DNA from: Rhabditophanes sp. KR3021
Lineage: Eukaryota > Nematoda > Chromadorea > Rhabditida > Alloionematidae
DNA: 64,000 nt
Direction: 5' to 3'
Assembly: GCA_963281155.1 (NCBI GenBank)
Contig: CAUJLY010000003.1
Span: 2,852,001 to 2,916,000, forward strand
Shown here: positions 45,330-57,014 of the stretch, in pieces
How the letters are laid out: each line of letters begins with the position of its first letter
How positions within the stretch are numbered: position 1 is the first letter of the stretch
Position numbers and translations under genes: made by a program
The notes under the pieces: generated by a model
What the model saw: the letters and a program-made list of their open reading frames with translations, nothing else
What the model was told of the DNA's origin: nothing
Databases searched by the model: none

Positions 45330-46310
45330 TTAAAATTCGTTTTTAACATTAAGATATCGTTTGAATAATTTCATAACAAAAATTGCGATGCCTCCATAAA
45401 CAACTAATATTCTAAAAAGACACAAGAAACAACGGTACAAGAATATTAACTTGAACCAAATGCCTGTAAATAATTTTGTTATCTTGATTTCTTGATTACA
45501 ATAAGGGCAGTTTTTTCTCCTTCCAACAACACACCACGACTTAATACAGTTTTGATGAAAAACGTGACGACAGGATAAATCAAATTGATAATTTGTTTCA
45601 AAGTTGTCGTCAGTTTGAACAGTAAACGTGTTATTATCTTTATTACTCATATGATCTTTGCAAATCGCACAAACATTATCCTGGATGACCGTGATGGGGA
45701 GTCCTTCTTTGGTTATTAATCCAATCTTGAACCCCATGATGTCATACACAACTTCTGCTAAATCTTTTCCAAGCGAACCAAAATAGAGACCATAAAATAT
45801 GACAAACATCGGATATCTGGCAAATACAGCTTTACTTAATCCTAGTGTTTCACAAAGATCAGTTTGATAAAGGATGACTCCATTTAAACCAAAGATTAAA
45901 AGGAGAAAACTTGTTCGGTTGAAGAAAACAAAAAGATAATAGACCATGGTCGGAGTCTTTTTTGAAACAATGTTACGAACTGCTCTTGCGTAAAAATACA
46001 AACTAAGTAACGTAAATGGGATCCACAAATAAAAGCAACTATTATATTTGAAATAAGTCAAAAATAATATTGGAACGATCCACAACAAGATGAAAGTTAT
46101 ATTCTAAATGAGCATATAATTACAATAATTTTGTATACCCAAACTTACTCTGAAACTTTTGTAACTTTTATAATACCAAAAAATACCCAAACAAGTGAGA
46201 ATGATTAAAGCTACTATATCTTCAAGATTTGTACAAACATAAAGTAAATCTAACTTTTCTTTTTCACAAGCATGGTTAGAGCAATTTAACGAAGTAATAT
46301 TATAATTCAT
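45330..46310 (-). CDS. RNF121/RNF175-like membrane RING E3 ligase, copy A
   Basis: ER/Golgi multi-pass ubiquitin ligase family. Exon 1 is 46310-46149 and exon 2 46103-45330, across a 45-nt intron. About six hydrophobic segments are followed by the family word FYGLYFGSLGKDLAE, KIGLITKEGLP, and a RING of CAIC...C(R)HVFHQNCIKSW...CPYC, then one or two further helices. The RING has a long polar insertion between its first and second Cys pairs, typical of RNF121. It is first in the operon-like run, 0.5 kb head to head with the DEAD-box gene. It is much diverged from copy B at 49262. Confidence 0.85.
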
Positions 46311-49261: not shown

Positions 49262-50200
49262 CTATTCTAATCCAAGGTATTTGTTGATACCTTGGACAAT
49301 AATGATGATGACAGGTTGCCAAACAACCAAGTAGCGTACCCAGTCTAACATTTGGCCATATAACAAATGCGGCTTCTCCCAGGGATTCTTAAAGGTTTCA
49401 GAAATATTTACCTTCTCTTTGCAGTACGGGCATGTCTGCATTTTACCAACTATTGTCCAGCCTCTAATGCAAAATTCATGGAACATATGCTGACATGATA
49501 GAGCTAAAACTGCCTCAGTTTCAGTCTCAAAGTCCTCATCCCCTTGTACATGCAAAGGCTGTCCGATCAATTGTAATTTGTCTCCACAGACGGCGCAAAT
49601 ATTTTGTTCAAGTACTTTCTTTGGCAAGCCTTCATAAGTGAAATACCCTATCTTGCAAGCCATTTTTTCGGAAGCGATTTCAGCTAAATCTTTGCTTAGG
49701 ACACCATAATACACTCCATAACACAAAAAGATAATTCCATAGTCGAGACACGTATTCGAATTAATATTGAATATTAAATTGACTCCGAGGATAGTCGCCA
49801 CAATAAGCACATATCCAGCTATTCCAAGAACATAACTTACCTTATGGAAGGACAAGAACCACTTGTAAACAAGGCGAGGAATCTTGCCTGAGATTGAATG
49901 TTGATTTACTTTGTTAAATAAATATAGATTACAGCCAGTAAAGAGAACCCAGGAAGCCAAAAACCGATACCATCCTTTGTTTATACCAGCACCAAAAGGA
50001 ATTATCCACAAACCTACGAATGAGAAAAGTCTGTATTGCTTGAAATTCTTCGTCTTCCACCACATCAATAGGCATTGGGCGATAATTAGAGCCACGAGGA
50101 AGATTAGCAGCATCTCTGAATGCATAACATCGTGGCCCGCATGTTCCTTGTGCATCTTTTCATGCTCGATCCGCCACTGTTCTTCCTCTGTAATCTCCAT
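49262..50200 (-). CDS. RNF121 orthologue-like membrane RING E3 ligase, copy B
   Basis: 312-residue single-exon protein closer to RNF121 than copy A. It has the N-terminal EEEQWRIEHEKMHKEHAGHD stretch, HSEMLLIFLVALIIAQ as first helix, about five more helices, CYGVYYGVLSKDLAEI, KIGYFTYEGLPKK, and a RING of CAVC...C(Q)HMFHEFCIRGW...CPYC with an acidic insertion. RNF121 acts in ER/Golgi quality control of membrane proteins. Its start is 156 bp from the divergent NDUFS8 start, so a shared promoter is likely. Confidence 0.92.
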   Translation of the reverse strand: MEITEEEQWRIEHEKMHKEHAGHDVMHSEMLLIFLVALIIAQCLLMWWKTKNFKQYRLFSFVGLWIIPFGAGINKGWYRFLASWVLFTGCNLYLFNKVNQHSISGKIPRLVYKWFLSFHKVSYVLGIAGYVLIVATILGVNLIFNINSNTCLDYGIIFLCYGVYYGVLSKDLAEIASEKMACKIGYFTYEGLPKKVLEQNICAVCGDKLQLIGQPLHVQGDEDFETETEAVLALSCQHMFHEFCIRGWTIVGKMQTCPYCKEKVNISETFKNPWEKPHLLYGQMLDWVRYLVVWQPVIIIIVQGINKYLGLE

Positions 50201-50355
50201 TGGTAGATAATGTTATTGTATCCGTAAGCAATGAGAAACAAAATTCTACTGCGACTAGTTGGAATATAGAGTCAAGAATCTTGTCTGGAATAACATGATC
50301 GTTTTTCCAAAACTAGTTGTTCTTAACTCCTCTGATTAATTTTTAATAAAGCAAT

Positions 50356-51091
50356 ATGTCGCTTTCAAGATTCGGAACAGTGTCCAAGACACTGGCTACT
50401 CGTGCCGTCGGAGTAAATCAATCTAGAAACAATTATAGTAAGTCTATTTTACACTAATTACATGCTAAACCTTCATTTAGAATATGTTGGCGAAAAGACA
50501 ATGAGTGATGGTTCTCTGAGTGGAGATATCACTAAAGGCTTGCATTCTGTTTACTTCACAGAATTAATCAGGGGTTTTGGTGTAATGTTAGGGCATTTCT
50601 TTACGGAACCTGCAACCATCAATTATCCTTTCGAAAAAGGGCCTTTGTCACCTCGTTTCCGCGGGGAGCACGCTTTGAGAAGATACCCTTCTGGGGAAGA
50701 AAGATGTATCGCCTGCAAACTGTGTGAGAGCGCTTGCCCAGCAAATGTAAGCCTTCTATTTATTTATCTTAAAAACATCTATTTATAGGCTATTACTATT
50801 GAAACAGAAACTAGACCTGATGGATCACGCCGTACTACTCGTTATGATATTGATATGACAAAATGTAAATACAACTGATTAGGAAATAATTTAAAATTTA
50901 ATTTAGGTATTTTCTGTGGAAATTGCGAGCATGCATGCCCAGTTGATGCTATCGTTGAGGGTCCAAATTTTGAATACTCTACCGAGACTCACGAAGAATT
51001 ATTGTACAACAAGGAAAAATTACTCCTCAATGGAGATCGCTGGGAAGCCGAAATCGGAGCTAACTTGCGCTCACAATATCTATATAGATAA
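50356..51091 (+). CDS. NDUFS8 (TYKY), complex I 2x[4Fe-4S] subunit
   Basis: Mitochondrial NADH:ubiquinone oxidoreductase subunit carrying clusters N6a and N6b. Four exons from ATG 50356, joined by 44-61 nt introns; one begins at about 50438, another at about 50745 and the last splits the codon before IFCGNC. The N-terminal 25 residues are basic and Ser/Thr-rich as a presequence. Then come [38 protein letters not shown], the two ferredoxin motifs [12 protein letters not shown] and [16 protein letters not shown], and the C-terminal [14 protein letters not shown]. The residue after CPA is Asn where Gln is usual. Length and order are typical. Confidence 0.97.
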
Positions 51092-51415
51092 TTTTTACAT
51101 TTGTCTCTAAATATTAGGTTTCAAATTTTTAACAACAAAATTTGGTAATAAAGTGTGTTACTGATTCAATGTGTTAATATAACATCCTTTACTATCTAAA
51201 TCTGTTGCACGAACAATTTACAGCAAATTTGATTCTTACTTAATAAACTAATATTACAAATAAATGGTGAGAAGGTTTTAATCTATGCATGCTCTTTTAA
51301 ATGACATCTTAGACTAAAGTAGTAATCTTTACAAAATAGATTTGAACTAGTATGGATCATTTAAGCTAAATATACTTCCTTAGCATTTAATTATTGCTCA
51401 TTTATTATTATTTGA

Positions 51416-52792
51416 ATGATGGAGTATCTTCTAAATCCTCATTTATCTACTGAATACCCAACTCCTGACCAGGTGGAAAACTTTATTGTCAACAAGTCAA
51501 GGATGGAATGCTGCGTCACTATAAAATGTCCAAAACTAGCCATTAAAAGTTATAAGGAAGGTTATCGTTACCTAAATCCACCACCAATTATTGAGTTTGG
51601 AAATTCATCTGGATGGAGTTTTTATAAATATCATGTCAATACTACTTATTCTAAGTGCTTAAAGGAGTTTGATGACAACAACATCATTTGTAATGATTAT
51701 CCATTAATTGAAGAAAGTTCAGATATAGGAATAGTTTCTACTGTCGAGGGAAATATTAATTTTGCCAAAATCACAAACAAATTTAATGGAATAACCATGA
51801 CTATTCCATTGAAAAATATTTACTTTGATAGTCGACAGGACTATAAAAATGTGTTCATTTCAAGTAGAATATTAACAACCAGTGGAATTACTCTGGGAAC
51901 GTTTGATTCTGGTTCTATTGATGTTGTGAGCAAGTTTTGTCATTCTAAGAAAGAAACATCGAAGAACTTTATAGACAATACTTTTATTAAAAGTGGCGAT
52001 CAAGTCTCTTTATTTCTGAAGGATAAAAAGAAGTTAACAAGCAACTTTGTTAATTGCAATGAAGATGTGTTTTTAGGAAGCCCGACAAATTACAAATGTT
52101 TTGACATTTTTGTAATTGATGAAAATAGAATGGGAGGTGATACTACCGAGTTACTACTTAGCAACTCCAATTTATATTACGGATGTGTAGTTTCAATCAG
52201 ATCTATTAATCCAGACATTCAACTGCCATTGCTTCGGATCATGAAGCCAAAGAATCAAATTGTAACATTGAAAGATCAATACACTCACCAAGAGAACGTT
52301 TGCCAAATGAGTCAAGTTTGCTTTATGATTGTGGATGCTTCAGAATATTACCTATCGTTGCAAGGTCCAAAACTAACTAATAAGATAGGAAACAGAATGA
52401 GTAATTATAAAGTGGAAGTTGATCATACTTGTATTTTTACATTAGCGGGAATTAGTGAAAGAATATACCAGTTTGGGTTCACTACAGGCATTCCCAACGC
52501 TTCAGTTACGCCATGTCCCTTTGTTTTGAACCACTGTGTTAACGTTTGTGATGATATTACAAAATTCGATTTGATTGGAGAAAATTTTACTACAAATTTA
52601 ACGGCTTGGGTTCGCCGAATGGAAATTAAGACAATTTTGAAAACTGAAACTGTTCTAACATTACTCTTTAATGCCAGTCAAATTGATAAGATAAAAGAAG
52701 CATATAGATATGACAATGCGGATGTTTATATTTATTTAGTTCGAAATGATGGAATAATTTATTCTACCAGTATTGAAGCCATTTTTGATTAG
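51416..52792 (+). CDS. Highly diverged CSL (RBPJ/Su(H)/LAG-1) family protein
   Basis: CSL proteins are the DNA-binding effectors of Notch signalling in the nucleus. This 458-residue single exon shows the whole CSL layout. The NTD has CVTIKCPKLAIKSYKEGYRY with NPPP (compare the conserved AQKSYGNEKRFFCPPP), the TxGxxxGTFDSGSIDVVSK region and SGDQVSLFLK. The beta-trefoil has YYGCVVSIRS, LPLLRI, and VCQMSQVCFMI with YLSLQG. The C-terminal IPT-like part ends LVRNDGIIYSTS, a near-perfect CSL word. Several DNA- and cofactor-contact stretches are changed. Normal CSL genes have introns; this one has none. Probably a second, fast-evolving copy and not the main LAG-1. Confidence 0.85.
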   Translation: MMEYLLNPHLSTEYPTPDQVENFIVNKSRMECCVTIKCPKLAIKSYKEGYRYLNPPPIIEFGNSSGWSFYKYHVNTTYSKCLKEFDDNNIICNDYPLIEESSDIGIVSTVEGNINFAKITNKFNGITMTIPLKNIYFDSRQDYKNVFISSRILTTSGITLGTFDSGSIDVVSKFCHSKKETSKNFIDNTFIKSGDQVSLFLKDKKKLTSNFVNCNEDVFLGSPTNYKCFDIFVIDENRMGGDTTELLLSNSNLYYGCVVSIRSINPDIQLPLLRIMKPKNQIVTLKDQYTHQENVCQMSQVCFMIVDASEYYLSLQGPKLTNKIGNRMSNYKVEVDHTCIFTLAGISERIYQFGFTTGIPNASVTPCPFVLNHCVNVCDDITKFDLIGENFTTNLTAWVRRMEIKTILKTETVLTLLFNASQIDKIKEAYRYDNADVYIYLVRNDGIIYSTSIEAIFD

Positions 52793-53275
52793 AAACCCTC
52801 AATATTTTAATTTTCTTGCCAAATAGGTTTTTGATTTCTTTGCTAATTGTTTGAATAAACTAAAATTATCAAAGAATATTGTCTGACCGTTGGAAATCCA
52901 TTCTTCATTTATTTTAACAAATCGTTCTAAATAGTATCATTTTGTTAACTCTTCTATCATTATTTTTATACAATTAATTAAGTGATATTATATTTCAAGA
53001 TAAATAGTGAGAAGTATCCAGTTGTGTAAAATATCTGCAGCAATATTTACTACTAAATATGACAAATTGGAAACAAATATTTATTTAGAGGTTAAGTTGT
53101 GATTAAATAGTAAAGCTAATTTTTAACTTAATTTTTTCAGATCTATTTTTAAACCTGCTCCAAATTTGATGATGTGACTTATTTAAGTATATTTCTACAT
53201 AATTTATGTTTTATTGATATAAAGTTGTTAAAATAACACAGAATTAGTAAATGATCTCAATGAAATGTTTTGCTA
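52793..53275. other. Intergenic between convergent genes
   Basis: AT-rich; no gene, RNA or array supported. Confidence 0.3.
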
Positions 53276-53684
53276 TTAATTGTTGTTACTCTTAGATTTA
53301 AATAAATAATTTAAAACCTTTTTACTAATTCCTTCCGAACAATTCTTACTTAGAATACATTTATTACTTGAGTCTCTGAGGAAGTTTTCTCCACATTGAC
53401 ATCGGGGTTCTCCACAGCTATCGTCTTTTGCAGGATTTTTTTGGGAACAACTTTTTTCTACTCGCTTTGAACATTCTCTCCAAACTTCATTAGTGGCACA
53501 CTTGCGTGAAACATTAGATGTTTCATCTTTGCTTTTAAACCATTTTCCTATATCCAATGAGAATGCACTTGTAATAGTGGTTCCAATGATGGATACCAAA
53601 ATTAGTATAATGAGTTTATGATTCGCCTAAAAATATATGGAGTTACATATTAAGAACTATATATTTTCATTTACTTACTAGCAT
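53276..53684 (-). CDS. Secreted TIL-type cysteine-rich protein, putative protease inhibitor
   Basis: Exon 1 is only ATGCTA (53684-53679). A short intron follows, and exon 2 continues with a hydrophobic signal peptide (LIILILVSIIGTTITSAFS) and ends at 53276. The mature part has eight Cys in trypsin-inhibitor-like order: CATNEVW, REC, KSC, DSC, PRC, QC, NKC, KNC. TIL domains normally carry ten. The NEVWREC start and CGENFLRDSSNKC end are typical. A basic, Asn/Ser-rich tail follows. TIL proteins usually inhibit serine proteases outside the cell; the reactive-site residue cannot be fixed by eye. Confidence 0.75.
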
Positions 53685-54274
53685 CTTTATAAATCTTTGT
53701 TAATAATGAAAGTACCACTTAATGTAAAATGAATTATTCATATAGCAAGGGGTTTTTTGTCATTACAAGCAGCCAATTGAGTTACACCTCTTAATCGAAA
53801 ATATTTGGGAAATGAATTATTTGCTTGAATATGTGTAATTTTAGATTATCGAAAAAGAGTTTTATTTCCTCAAAGTATAAAATACCAAAATATTTATTTT
53901 ATAGTGTATGATCACTTGCTCCAATATTAACTTTAAAGTCATATTTAAGTTCTTTTACGTATTTCATTCTTAAGCTTGTCAAAAATAAAATATTATTTAC
54001 ATAAACATAAGTAATAGTTCAATGCTGACTTTAACTAAATAGTATTGCTTAGATAATTGGGAAGACTTCAACGATTATGGATAATTTATATGTCAGAAAT
54101 TAATATGTTAGATATTGACACTTTACTTAAAACAAAGAAGAATTCATTTGTAAAGTTTTATTTTCTCTTAATGTACGTACAAAATTCTACATTAATTTAG
54201 CATAACACAAAACATTTATTCAGATTATATTAAGATAATTTAAGTAATAAAAAATAGAAAATAGAAACTCCAAA
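53685..54274. other. Intergenic
   Basis: AT-rich; upstream of the TIL gene and downstream of the next minus-strand gene. No feature supported. Confidence 0.3.
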
Positions 54275-54846
54275 TTATTTGGGACAGACATAAGCCATAG
54301 TTATACCCAAAATAGCAGCGATAATTAAAATAACGGTGATGACAATCCAGTGTACTTTCTCAAAAGTAGAGTTTATATCAGTTAAGGTTTCTCTAGTGAA
54401 ATCATCACTCATAATGAGGTTTACTTCCTAAAAATGATTTTTTAATTAATTATTCAACGAAACAAGATTAATTTACAGCAATGTTTGTTATAACCATATC
54501 ATTGTGTTTCCTTACAATTTGATCAGTGTTGTTTTTTACAATCGAATCATTCGTTCTCTTTAAAACAGTTGGATCTTCATAATTGACTTCCTTTATAAAA
54601 GGTATTTGATTATTGTCAAAGCCTGCTTTGATTAAGTTTGTAGTAGTAACGATATTTGCAGTAACTCGGTCTTGCATTTTTGGGGTAGAAAAGTTTTGTT
54701 GAAATGAATTTAGAAATTACAACTTCAGAAATATTTTGTACTGAATTGTTAGTTGTAGTCAATTTGTCAACGGGCATAGATGCAACTGGGGACAATAGGA
54801 TATTTAAGGCGGTAATAATTATATAAGCAGAATACATTGTAAACAT
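54275..54846 (-). CDS. Small secretory-pathway membrane protein with an apparent frame break
   Basis: From ATG at 54846 the frame gives a signal peptide (YSAYIIITALNILLSPVASM) and about 35 Ser/Thr/Asn-rich residues. An overlapping frame then takes over at about 54690 (MQDRVTANIV) and runs to a GT donor near 54473. A short intron leads to a last exon (about 54425-54275) with FEKVHWIVITVILIIAAILG and a tail ending YVCPK. The result would be a type I membrane protein of about 170 residues with N-glycosylation sites. The two frames meet at a CCCCAAAAA stretch, so a one-base difference would join them. Alternatively, the second frame alone is a separate tail-anchored protein. No family recognised. 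Confidence 0.45.
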
Positions 54847-55236: not shown

Positions 55237-57014
55237 TTAACAATTTTTCTGAAAAGTAACAATATAATTTCCTTGCTCTAAGATAACTTCAATGACTTCG
55301 AGTCCATCAACCTTATTGACTAGTTTTTCCAATTCTCCTTCAACAAACATGTGATAATACCGTAAGAATTGCTGTTCTCCTGTTTTATCCTTTTGCCAAG
55401 GGACCAACATATCTTGCTGACTAAATTGCTTTCCATTGTGAACTCTTAATAGCGAACAATCACTTATTGTTTCCTCCTCCTCGTCTTTATTCGATCTCAT
55501 TATTTCATATTGAGACGCTTTTTGATCCATTGCCCAAACAGTAACGCAGCCTCTTCCTCCGACTTTTAGAACGTTTGCTAATTGCTGGAAGGCTTGTATT
55601 CTTCTGGCTTCCGTCGACATATGGTGAATTACTGCGATTGAAATGACTGCATCAGCTAAATCATGTTTAAATGGCAAATTCAAAATATCTCCTTGCACTA
55701 CGTCGCATTTCTTTTTACTAGCAATCCGGCAAAGATTAAAACACAAATCACTCCCAATTTTGATCAAATTGTCTTCTCTTATCAAATATTTCCCATTCCC
55801 ACAACCCAAATCAAGTAATACAGAATAAGGCGCTAAACCATCTATGAAATTACTGACTGCCTTCCACTGAGAATACCTGGTTTCATCAAAATGATCAGCA
55901 ATATTTTCATAAACTTCTTGAACATACGTACTCTCCAGGTGCTTCCCTTTCTTATCATCTGCAGGAATTGCCATTTCTCCATTTCTGTCCCAGTCGCAAT
56001 ACTCTATGAATTTGCACTCACACTTTGTGCTCTGGACTTTCCGAAATGTGATGGAGATTCTTTTTTGCCTTTTTACTATTCTATTTGTTATAGGATTGAT
56101 ATCATACTTCCTACTTAAGATGCCATGCTTCCATTTATATCTAGAGTCTTCTTCCATTACTAATAAACAATTCTTATCCAACAAAACATCTCGCATAATT
56201 GCTGGATTGGTGCAATCCTTAAACTGCATCACAACATCTGATAATAAGCTTAGTGATAATATTTGATTTCCAAAAGCAGAATGCGTATCAACGTGAAACG
56301 GTATTCCTTGATTTTCTTCATAAATATTTATGGTAATTTGATCAGGAATCTGGCCGTTTAGTACTTTTCCAAAAATTAGTTTCCGAATTAATGCTTCCAA
56401 TTGTGGTGGAATAGGTGTTGCTTGCTCTAGGGCACAATTTGAGTCATAGTTAAATTTGTAACCAAAATGCAAGACAGTCCTGTTTTTGAGTGTGTTTCCA
56501 TCCTTTTCAGCCAACTGTTCAATATATTTAATCAACTCCTCACTATCCTTTTCATTAATAAAGTCTTTTACTATTTTCATCCCAGTTGGGAACAGCTTAT
56601 TTTGATTGAATATTTCCTTAGGGATGGATTTGACATACGAACCGATAAATGGAACAAATGTTTTATCGTATTTCTTTAATGTGTCCGGAATTGTTCCTTG
56701 GATTTGTTGCAAGGCGGTGGTAGCGTTTTCACAATTTGTGAAGATGACAAATGAGTAGCTTCTTCCTGCTGGATACACTATAAAATTCACACCAGCATCA
56801 AATTTAGTAAATATTTCTTCTAAGTCGTCGTAATTGACTCCACATGAAATGGAAGTATTGCCTACAACAAGAAACTAAATCAGAAAATAATTAATTGGAA
56901 AATGATGTCCGGTATTACCTTTGTTGGAACTGGTGATAGTTCAATTTCATTATTGTGTTTATTCACTTGTCCTAAAACTTTCAAAATTTGTTTCCTTAAT
57001 TTTTTCTGATCCAT
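55237..57014 (-). CDS. ALKBH8, tRNA wobble-uridine hydroxylase/methyltransferase
   Basis: Bifunctional enzyme maturing mcm5U to (S)-mchm5U at the tRNA wobble position. Two exons: 57014 to about 56919, and about 56875-55237. Order: N-terminal helix MDQKKLRKQILKVL, an RRM with FLVVGN and SYSFVIF, an AlkB domain, and a TRM9-like methyltransferase. The AlkB part shows the iron ligands HVD in IPFHVDTHSAFG and the distal His in YKWKHGI, with RISITFR for 2-oxoglutarate. The C-terminal part has SAM motif DLGCGNGKYL, GSDLC, VQGDILNLPF and AVIHHM. A Cys-rich zinc word CECKFIEYCDW links the two. All catalytic residues seen are intact; length about 560 residues, slightly below the vertebrate form. Confidence 0.95.

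What the first reader, a model, noticed from the sequence alone, without database searches (positions are those of the whole stretch)
51416..52792. Intronless, strongly diverged CSL (Notch effector) protein
The frame keeps the full NTD, beta-trefoil and CTD order of CSL and the near-invariant end LVRNDGIIYSTS, yet most positions differ, including the conserved NTD stretch that contacts DNA (YGNEKRFFCPPP becomes YKEGYRYLNPPP). Animals usually have one highly conserved CSL gene. A rapidly changing second copy without introns suggests a retrocopy or a specialised paralogue, possibly with altered DNA or co-factor choice.
Basis: partly seen in the sequence, partly recalled or inferred. Interest (0 to 1): 0.78.

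Follow-up and report, generated by a model that had tools for sequence, protein, structure and literature searches.

The report
Most altered of six extra CSL genes
A free-living roundworm has, besides its normal Notch-pathway switch protein, six heavily rewritten extra copies of it, and the one in this window is the most altered at the sites that normally touch DNA; the same genome also carries odd, simplified Notch receptors, so a second version of this pathway may exist.

Summary
In detail: window 51416-52792 is an uninterrupted 458-codon CSL gene with NTD, beta-trefoil and CTD in order; its AlphaFold model matches LAG-1/RBPJ structures. The genome is Rhabditophanes diutinus KR3021. It has one ordinary intron-bearing LAG-1 and at least six diverged CSL paralogues, not one "second copy". 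They form one fast-evolving group among chromadorean nematodes (long branches). All six lack LAG-1's four core introns; two keep an apparently matching 5' intron, suggesting copying from partly spliced RNA. The window copy keeps 1 of 7 literature-named DNA-contact residues (22 of 22 reference CSLs keep all 7) and matches its own LAG-1 at 1 of 7 named cofactor positions. Silent sites are far diverged yet the frame is intact, so it is kept by selection. The genome also has single-frame Notch receptors whose intracellular parts hold no tryptophan, so no classical RAM motif. Best reading: a specialised CSL with changed DNA recognition, probably uncoupled from RAM-type Notch. A co-diverged second Notch-CSL circuit is possible, unproven.

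The parts
51416..52792 (+). Diverged CSL paralogue, one exon, 458 codons plus TAG stop
51515..51961 (+). N-terminal domain (LAG1-DNAbind, PF09271), aa 34-182
   Evidence: 38.0 bits, cut-off 25
51548..51586 (+). Altered NTD DNA-contact stretch SYKEGYRYLNPPP (LAG-1: SYGNEKRFFCPPP); of the named contacts here (mouse E89, R91, F92) only the arginine is kept
52061..52372 (+). Beta-trefoil domain (BTD, PF09270), aa 216-319
   Evidence: 45.8 bits, cut-off 25
52019..52033 (+). Beta-trefoil DNA-contact stretch KDKKK (aa 202-206) in place of RLRSQ; mouse R218, S221 and Q222 all read K
52151..52159 (+). Notch-RAM pocket stretch (aa 246-248): mouse F261 and V263 both read L
52523..52771 (+). C-terminal domain (TIG_SUH, PF20144), aa 370-452, with the conserved LVRNDGIIYSTS end
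   Evidence: 43.8 bits, cut-off 24
51380..51383 (+). TTAG, a possible (trans-)splice acceptor, 32 bases between it and the ATG
   Evidence: seen in sequence; function inferred
52854..52859 (+). AATAAA, possible polyadenylation signal, 61 bases between the stop and it
   Evidence: seen in sequence; function inferred

Best explanation
The window gene is a maintained, fast-evolving CSL paralogue of Rhabditophanes diutinus, one of six that descend from the nematode LAG-1 gene, probably through a copy of partly spliced RNA and later duplication. It is predicted still to fold as NTD, beta-trefoil and CTD. Inferred mode of action: it sits on DNA with changed or relaxed site choice (NTD arginine kept, beta-trefoil contacts replaced by lysines) and no longer answers to the RAM peptide of ordinary Notch, so it works as a Notch-uncoupled regulator, much as vertebrate RBPJL does. 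Shown: gene, domains, predicted fold, paralogy, residue changes, maintenance of the frame. Inferred: DNA binding, target choice, loss of RAM response.
For: Three CSL domains over cut-off. Predicted fold with mean pLDDT 84.5 and pTM 0.84; the best 18 PDB matches are all CSL chains, TMq 0.76-0.82 (the input alignment held CSL sequences). Ordinary LAG-1 elsewhere in the genome, identical to the Rhabditophanes sp. KR3021 entry over the 514 aa compared. Six paralogues on three scaffolds group together, 100/100. All six are open across the four LAG-1 core intron sites; a phase-1 5' intron within an Asp codon is shared by LAG-1 and two paralogues. Window versus its nearest paralogue: four-fold sites 57% different (27 of 47; 68% expected if random) but the frame is intact; in a substitution-only neutral simulation at 0.1 substitutions per site 0 of 300 runs stayed stop-free, at 0.05 2 of 300. 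Of seven DNA-contact positions named in print (mouse E89, R91, F92, K195, R218, S221, Q222) the window keeps 1, against 3 to 5 in the five sister copies and 7 of 7 in each of 22 reference CSLs that I picked from the 120 listed and; F261, invariant in those 22, reads L (papers). RBPJL is a precedent for a CSL paralogue that does not bind NICD (PMC8508133, passages).
Against: No expression or binding data. The changes could abolish DNA binding altogether: E89 reads G, the same substitution as human E63G, whose mouse equivalent is reported to weaken binding about six-fold (PMC9398005, passages), and six of seven contacts are gone. The cofactor argument is the weaker one: apart from F261, the seven named cofactor positions also vary among ordinary CSLs (only 6 of the 22 references keep all seven mouse residues, none of them a nematode), and two of the window's changes there (E398D, R422K) are mild. 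RBPJL keeps F261 and still does not bind NICD, so single residues do not decide. Extreme divergence makes column placement in loops uncertain. Other nematodes could not be searched well enough to say how widespread the paralogues are.
Confidence: 0.57

Rival explanations
1. Co-diverged second Notch circuit: the CSL paralogues are the nuclear partners of the genome's short RAM-less Notch receptors (C3:1.18 Mb and the pair at C1:2.94/3.28 Mb), assembling through ankyrin repeats and CTD alone.
For: Three single-frame Notch-like genes: LNR and ANK by Pfam in the two that I scanned (L045, L047), the third (L048) 99% identical to L047. No tryptophan anywhere in their 336- or 466-residue intracellular parts, while both conventional Notches have W-x-P with the W 12-13 residues after the membrane segment as I placed it by eye; one aligns to the LIN-12 RAM peptide in 3brd_D (weak, E 0.72). 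In the CSL paralogues the RAM-pocket position V263 is Y in 4, F in 1 and L in the window copy.
Against: Co-occurrence only, in one genome; no interaction evidence; six CSLs against two receptor types; the reading that a bulky residue fills the pocket was not modelled with a peptide. V263 also varies in ordinary CSLs (T, P or S in 4 of 22).
Confidence: 0.22
2. Dominant-negative or titrating CSL: it cannot bind DNA well and instead soaks up LAG-1 cofactors, as the Drosophila Su(H) T4 (E137V) protein is reported to do.
For: The same glutamate is changed (E89 to G) and K195, R218, S221 and Q222 are replaced. The titration mechanism is in print (PMC9398005, passages).
Against: Its NICD and co-repressor positions are changed as well: 6 of 7 differ from its own LAG-1, so it should be a poor sponge for LAG-1 partners. 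The replaced beta-trefoil contacts are lysines, a basic patch.
Confidence: 0.12
3. A decaying retro-pseudogene whose frame is open by chance.
For: No LAG-1 core introns; very high divergence; a sister copy at C1:5.61 Mb has a frame break.
Against: Silent sites are far diverged with no stop in 458 codons; 0 of 300 neutral simulations at 0.1 substitutions per site stayed open. Domain signals and predicted fold are kept.
Confidence: 0.03

Closest known systems
C. elegans LAG-1 / mouse RBPJ / Drosophila Su(H) (class M CSL)
   Same: Three-domain order, predicted fold (TMq 0.76-0.82 to PDB CSL chains), conserved KSY..R..P and C-terminal motifs
   Different: 22-27% identity in alignment A3; 6 of 7 named DNA contacts replaced, and 6 of 7 named cofactor positions differ from its own LAG-1; no introns where LAG-1 of the same genome has four in the core
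Vertebrate RBPJL
   Same: A CSL paralogue beside the ordinary CSL; RBPJL does not bind NICD (PMC8508133, passages)
   Different: RBPJL keeps the R218, F261 and L388 equivalents and binds the canonical site (same passages); the window protein has K, L and V there. Separate origin (inferred)
Fungal CSL classes F1/F2 (Cbf11, Cbf12; seven CSL genes in Rhizopus oryzae)
   Same: More than one CSL gene; DNA binding without Notch
   Different: In the fungal proteins studied all sequence-specific DNA-binding residues but one in one protein are conserved (PMC1973085, passages); in the window copy they are not

Membership tests
CSL protein family (by descent and architecture) | LAG1-DNAbind, BTD and TIG_SUH domains in that order | tested here: met
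   all three over the curated cut-off
CSL protein family (by descent and architecture) | CSL three-domain fold | tested here: met
   (prediction; the alignment held CSL sequences)
CSL protein family (by descent and architecture) | Common descent with nematode LAG-1 | tested here: met
   falls on the chromadorean side with all six paralogues (100/100) and alone (100/100); exact attachment unresolved, branches very long
Canonical CSL effector (LAG-1/RBPJ/Su(H) function) | Conserved residues for DNA contact | tested here: not met
   1 of 7 named positions kept (R91); 22 of 22 reference CSLs keep 7 of 7
Canonical CSL effector (LAG-1/RBPJ/Su(H) function) | Residues that bind Notch NICD or co-repressor (F261, V263, A284, L388, E398, R422, E425) | tested here: inconclusive
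   1 of 7 agrees with its own LAG-1 (V at 388) and F261, kept in 22 of 22 references, is lost; but the other six vary among ordinary CSLs (6 of 22 keep all seven mouse residues)
Canonical CSL effector (LAG-1/RBPJ/Su(H) function) | Binds GTGGGAA and activates with NICD and Mastermind | not testable with these tools
   needs protein
Processed retrocopy | Parental introns absent | tested here: met
   the four LAG-1 core introns are absent; no 5' intron seen for the window copy, though 4 of 6 paralogues have one
Processed retrocopy | Poly-A tract and target-site duplication | not tested
   no search was run; at this age they would be expected to have decayed (inference)
RBPJL-like Notch-unresponsive paralogue | Does not bind NICD but binds the canonical CSL site | not testable with these tools
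   inferred only from residue changes

The most novel reading that the evidence does not exclude
Rhabditophanes diutinus has built a second, parallel Notch-CSL system: Notch receptors that have lost the RAM tryptophan, and CSL paralogues whose RAM pocket and DNA-reading residues have been rewritten. The window gene is the member furthest from the canonical DNA code, giving an orthogonal signalling line next to the ordinary one.
Probability: 0.22. Interest if true: 0.88.

Novelty: new variant of a known kind. Interest (0 to 1): 0.66.

Why it matters
CSL is among the most conserved animal transcription factors; PMC1973085 (passages) calls the similarity among metazoan CSL proteins extremely high. 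A free-living relative of Strongyloides with six rewritten CSLs is a natural mutagenesis experiment: it shows which residues may change while the domains are kept, and lets one ask whether receptor and effector co-evolve when RAM binding is dropped. It makes testable how a pathway with one nuclear effector can split into several.

Tried and rejected
Taxonomic placement by 18S rRNA failed because the search machine did not answer. The species was instead named from the LAG-1 match and the assembly statistics in PMC10676810 (section 15 read: 44.8 Mb, six scaffolds of 11.2, 9.3, 7.8, 7.5, 6.5 and 2.3 Mb; G000 has 44,845,725 bases in 6 contigs, and the four contigs whose lengths I saw, C1, C3, C4 and C6, fit).

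Looking for the paralogues in other nematodes: the profile search returned only the window protein, the C4 copy of the same species (P0123) and a tardigrade CSL among 5441 candidates; the single-sequence search gave only the window protein and the tardigrade CSL among 2659. The method needs shared five-residue words and did not return the other four copies either, nor ordinary LAG-1s, so this is not evidence of absence elsewhere. The LAG-1 query gave 1417 proteins, of which 120 were listed.

Tree placement within Chromadorea is unresolved. The tree program warned of long branches meeting and of odd composition in the window and C1:5.61 rows. An AU test does not reject the paralogues joining Rhabditophanes LAG-1 plus P0004 (p 0.416) or Rhabditophanes LAG-1 alone (p 0.183). 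P0004 is its nearest LAG-1 in the tree; its species name is cut off in the listing. Trees with one paralogue at a time were made for 3 of 6 (6.0, 8.2, window); each falls on the chromadorean side, with an end branch of length 10, which looks like the program's ceiling.

Pseudogene reading rejected by the neutral simulation. No useful dN/dS: four-fold differences over the six pairs of four copies run from 49% to 74% (32 to 48 sites each) against 68-71% expected at random, and the window/C1:6.01 pair (49%) is lower than the closer window/C1:2.71 pair (57%), so these small samples do not rank well. Shared DNA between window 49501-54500 and the six other CSL loci: one 37-base match of 81% to L031, inside both coding regions, so no sign of recent segmental duplication. 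A GST gene lies downstream of the copies at C1:2.71 and C1:8.22 Mb (35% identical to each other); too weak to show joint duplication.

Papers on CSL or Notch duplication in nematodes: in what the searches listed (20 of 84; 20 of 295; 12 of 121; 10 of 1118; none found; 2 of 2) no title or abstract start describes these genes; most subscription journals are not held. PMC10970066 and PMC8166818 were seen as passages.

Full report
OBSERVATION. Window 51416-52792 (+) is an intact 458-codon frame. Pfam-A finds LAG1-DNAbind (aa 34-182, 38.0 bits), BTD (216-319, 45.8) and TIG_SUH (370-452, 43.8), all above their cut-offs. PDB sequence search gives C. elegans LAG-1 first, E 6e-35, aa 13-453. A 42-sequence AlphaFold2 model has mean pLDDT 84.5 and pTM 0.84, and the best 18 PDB structures are all CSL chains, TMq 0.76-0.82; the alignment contained CSL sequences, so this confirms that the protein can take the fold rather than discovering it. 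A TTAG lies 32 bases before the ATG and an AATAAA 61 bases after the stop, consistent with a working gene but not proof.

ORGANISM. The window is C3:2852001-2916000 of a 44.8 Mb, six-contig genome. The conventional CSL on C6 is identical over 514 aa to the Rhabditophanes sp. KR3021 entry P0003, and contig number and size fit R. diutinus KR3021 in PMC10676810 (section 15 read). It is a free-living relative of Strongyloides (PMC7738172, passages).

SEVEN CSL GENES. Searches with the three CSL Pfam models and with the window protein agree: LAG-1 on C6, and six diverged copies at C3:2.90 (window), C1:2.71, C1:5.61, C1:6.01, C1:8.22 and C4:1.17 Mb. The tool states that its counts are lower bounds. 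A further place, C4:1.48 Mb, holds only a CTD fragment inside a 2-kb, 98% identical duplicate of the C4 locus. The C1:5.61 copy is split between two frames near the CTD. The C4 copy is in the protein database with the 5' exon that I had seen in the DNA (P0123).

INTRONS AND ORIGIN. LAG-1 has four introns inside the core (at KR in the NTD motif, after L, after Q, and at R) and a 5' intron within an Asp codon (G^AC). All six paralogues are open across the four core sites. Copies C1:5.61 and C1:8.22 have a phase-1 intron within an Asp codon upstream of the NTD, apparently the same one, though the protein ends around it cannot be aligned; C1:6.01 (phase 1) and C4 (phase 0) have a 5' intron at other codons; C1:8.22 has one extra 38-base intron in the trefoil. 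For the window copy and C1:2.71 I saw no upstream exon, though one could be missed. The pattern, core introns gone and a 5' intron kept, suggests copying from partly spliced RNA followed by duplication and dispersal. This is inference. The window has other long frames, so missing introns alone say little.

PHYLOGENY AND SELECTION. With 22 reference CSLs the six paralogues form one group (100/100) on the chromadorean side of the nematodes, with end branches of 2.3 to 5.4 against a median of 0.42 for the tree; the program warns of long branches and of odd composition in two of the rows. Tested singly, three of the six (6.0, 8.2, window) also fall on the chromadorean side. AU tests do not exclude a Rhabditophanes-only origin (p 0.183) or one shared with P0004, its nearest LAG-1 (p 0.416). 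The window's nearest kin is C1:2.71 (36% identity). Between these two, four-fold sites differ at 57% (47 sites; 68% expected if random), while second positions differ at 37%. A substitution-only neutral simulation of the window frame kept 2 of 300 runs stop-free at 0.05 substitutions per site and 0 of 300 at 0.1. So the protein has been kept by selection. I could not compute a useful dN/dS.

CONTACT RESIDUES (mouse numbering). Positions named for DNA binding in passages of PMC9398005, PMC4176381 and PMC3598750 are E89, R91, F92, K195, R218, S221 and Q222; human E63, R65, F66 and K169 were converted by adding 26, an offset the paper gives for E63/E89 and K169/K195. Each of the 22 reference CSLs keeps 7 of 7. 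The window reads G, R, Y, H, K, K, K: 1 of 7 kept. The sister copies keep 4 (C1:2.71), 5 (C1:6.01), 5 (C4), 3 (C1:5.61) and 5 (C1:8.22). Positions named for NICD or co-repressor binding (F261, V263, A284, L388, E398, R422, E425; PMC9398005, PMC9604145 and PMC8508133, passages) read L, L, Q, V, D, K, T in the window; its own LAG-1 reads F, V, S, V, E, R, E, so they agree at one. Against this reading: only F261 is invariant in the 22 references; the other six positions vary among ordinary CSLs, and 6 of 22, none a nematode, keep all seven mouse residues. The DNA-contact argument is therefore the strong one. Of 166 columns near-invariant in the references, the window copy keeps 58, the sister copies 63 to 80.

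A LEAD BEYOND THE FINDING. The same genome has Notch genes of two kinds. Two look conventional: C4:0.62 Mb (EGF, LNR, NOD, ANK) and C4:4.55 Mb (EGF, NOD, ANK), with the juxtamembrane sequences IWKP and VWMP; the second aligns, weakly (E 0.72), to the LIN-12 RAM peptide of 3brd. Three others are single long frames: C3:1.18 Mb (748 aa frame; LNR, ANK) and a near-identical pair at C1:3.28 and C1:2.94 Mb (893 aa frames; LNR and ANK scanned in the first; 14 of 2679 bases differ). None of these three has a tryptophan anywhere in its intracellular part, so none can carry the classical W-x-P RAM motif. Fragments lie at C4:1.19 and C1:1.15 Mb. In the CSL paralogues, the RAM-pocket position V263 is Y in 4, F in 1 and L in the window copy; in the references it is V in 18 of 22. 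Loss of the RAM tryptophan on one side and a bulky residue in its pocket on the other would fit co-evolution, but this is correlation in one genome. Three DSL-domain places were also found; I did not pursue them.

WHAT IT MOST LIKELY DOES. A specialised CSL that still holds DNA, with changed or relaxed site choice, and no longer responds to RAM-type Notch, comparable in outcome to vertebrate RBPJL. Whether it serves the RAM-less receptors is the most interesting open possibility. It belongs to the CSL family by descent and architecture, but should not be called a canonical LAG-1/RBPJ effector, since the DNA-contact residues fail.

NOVELTY. Animals usually have one CSL, vertebrates two (recalled; the vertebrate RBP-L duplication is in PMC1973085 passages). 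Seven CSL genes are on record for the fungus Rhizopus oryzae (same passages). My paper searches listed nothing on these nematode genes. New variant of a known kind.

Noticed in passing
L045 1324-3567 (-), L047 227-2905 (-), L048 70-2748 (-); C3:1.18 Mb, C1:3.28 Mb, C1:2.94 Mb: Three single-frame Notch-like receptors (LNR and ANK by Pfam in L045 and L047; L048 is 99% identical to L047; membrane segment by eye) whose intracellular parts contain no tryptophan, hence no classical RAM motif.
   Followed up: partly
L055 2255-4632 (-); C4:4.55 Mb: A Notch gene with a LIN-12-like RAM motif (VWMP) in whose 611-aa frame an EGF repeat runs straight into the NOD domain; no LNR was found there or listed near it, so the usual autoinhibitory part may be missing. 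The 178-aa upstream frame was not scanned on its own.
   Followed up: partly
L034 3986-5987; C4:1.48 Mb: A 2-kb, 98% identical duplicate of the C4 CSL locus that carries only the CTD of the CSL gene plus the neighbouring ORF of about 400 aa.
   Followed up: partly
window 45330-46088 (-) and 49262-50200 (-): Two single-frame RING-finger proteins (RNF121-like, name recalled), 34% identical, about 3 kb apart: another diverged paralogue pair in this window.
   Followed up: partly
window 55237-56790 (-): A single frame with a 2OG-Fe(II) oxygenase domain followed by a methyltransferase domain, resembling the ALKBH8 tRNA modification enzyme (name recalled).
   Followed up: no
L031 about 4140; C1:5.61 Mb: The C1:5.61 CSL copy changes reading frame just before its CTD, at a short A-run; either a recent pseudogene or an assembly error.
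   Followed up: no
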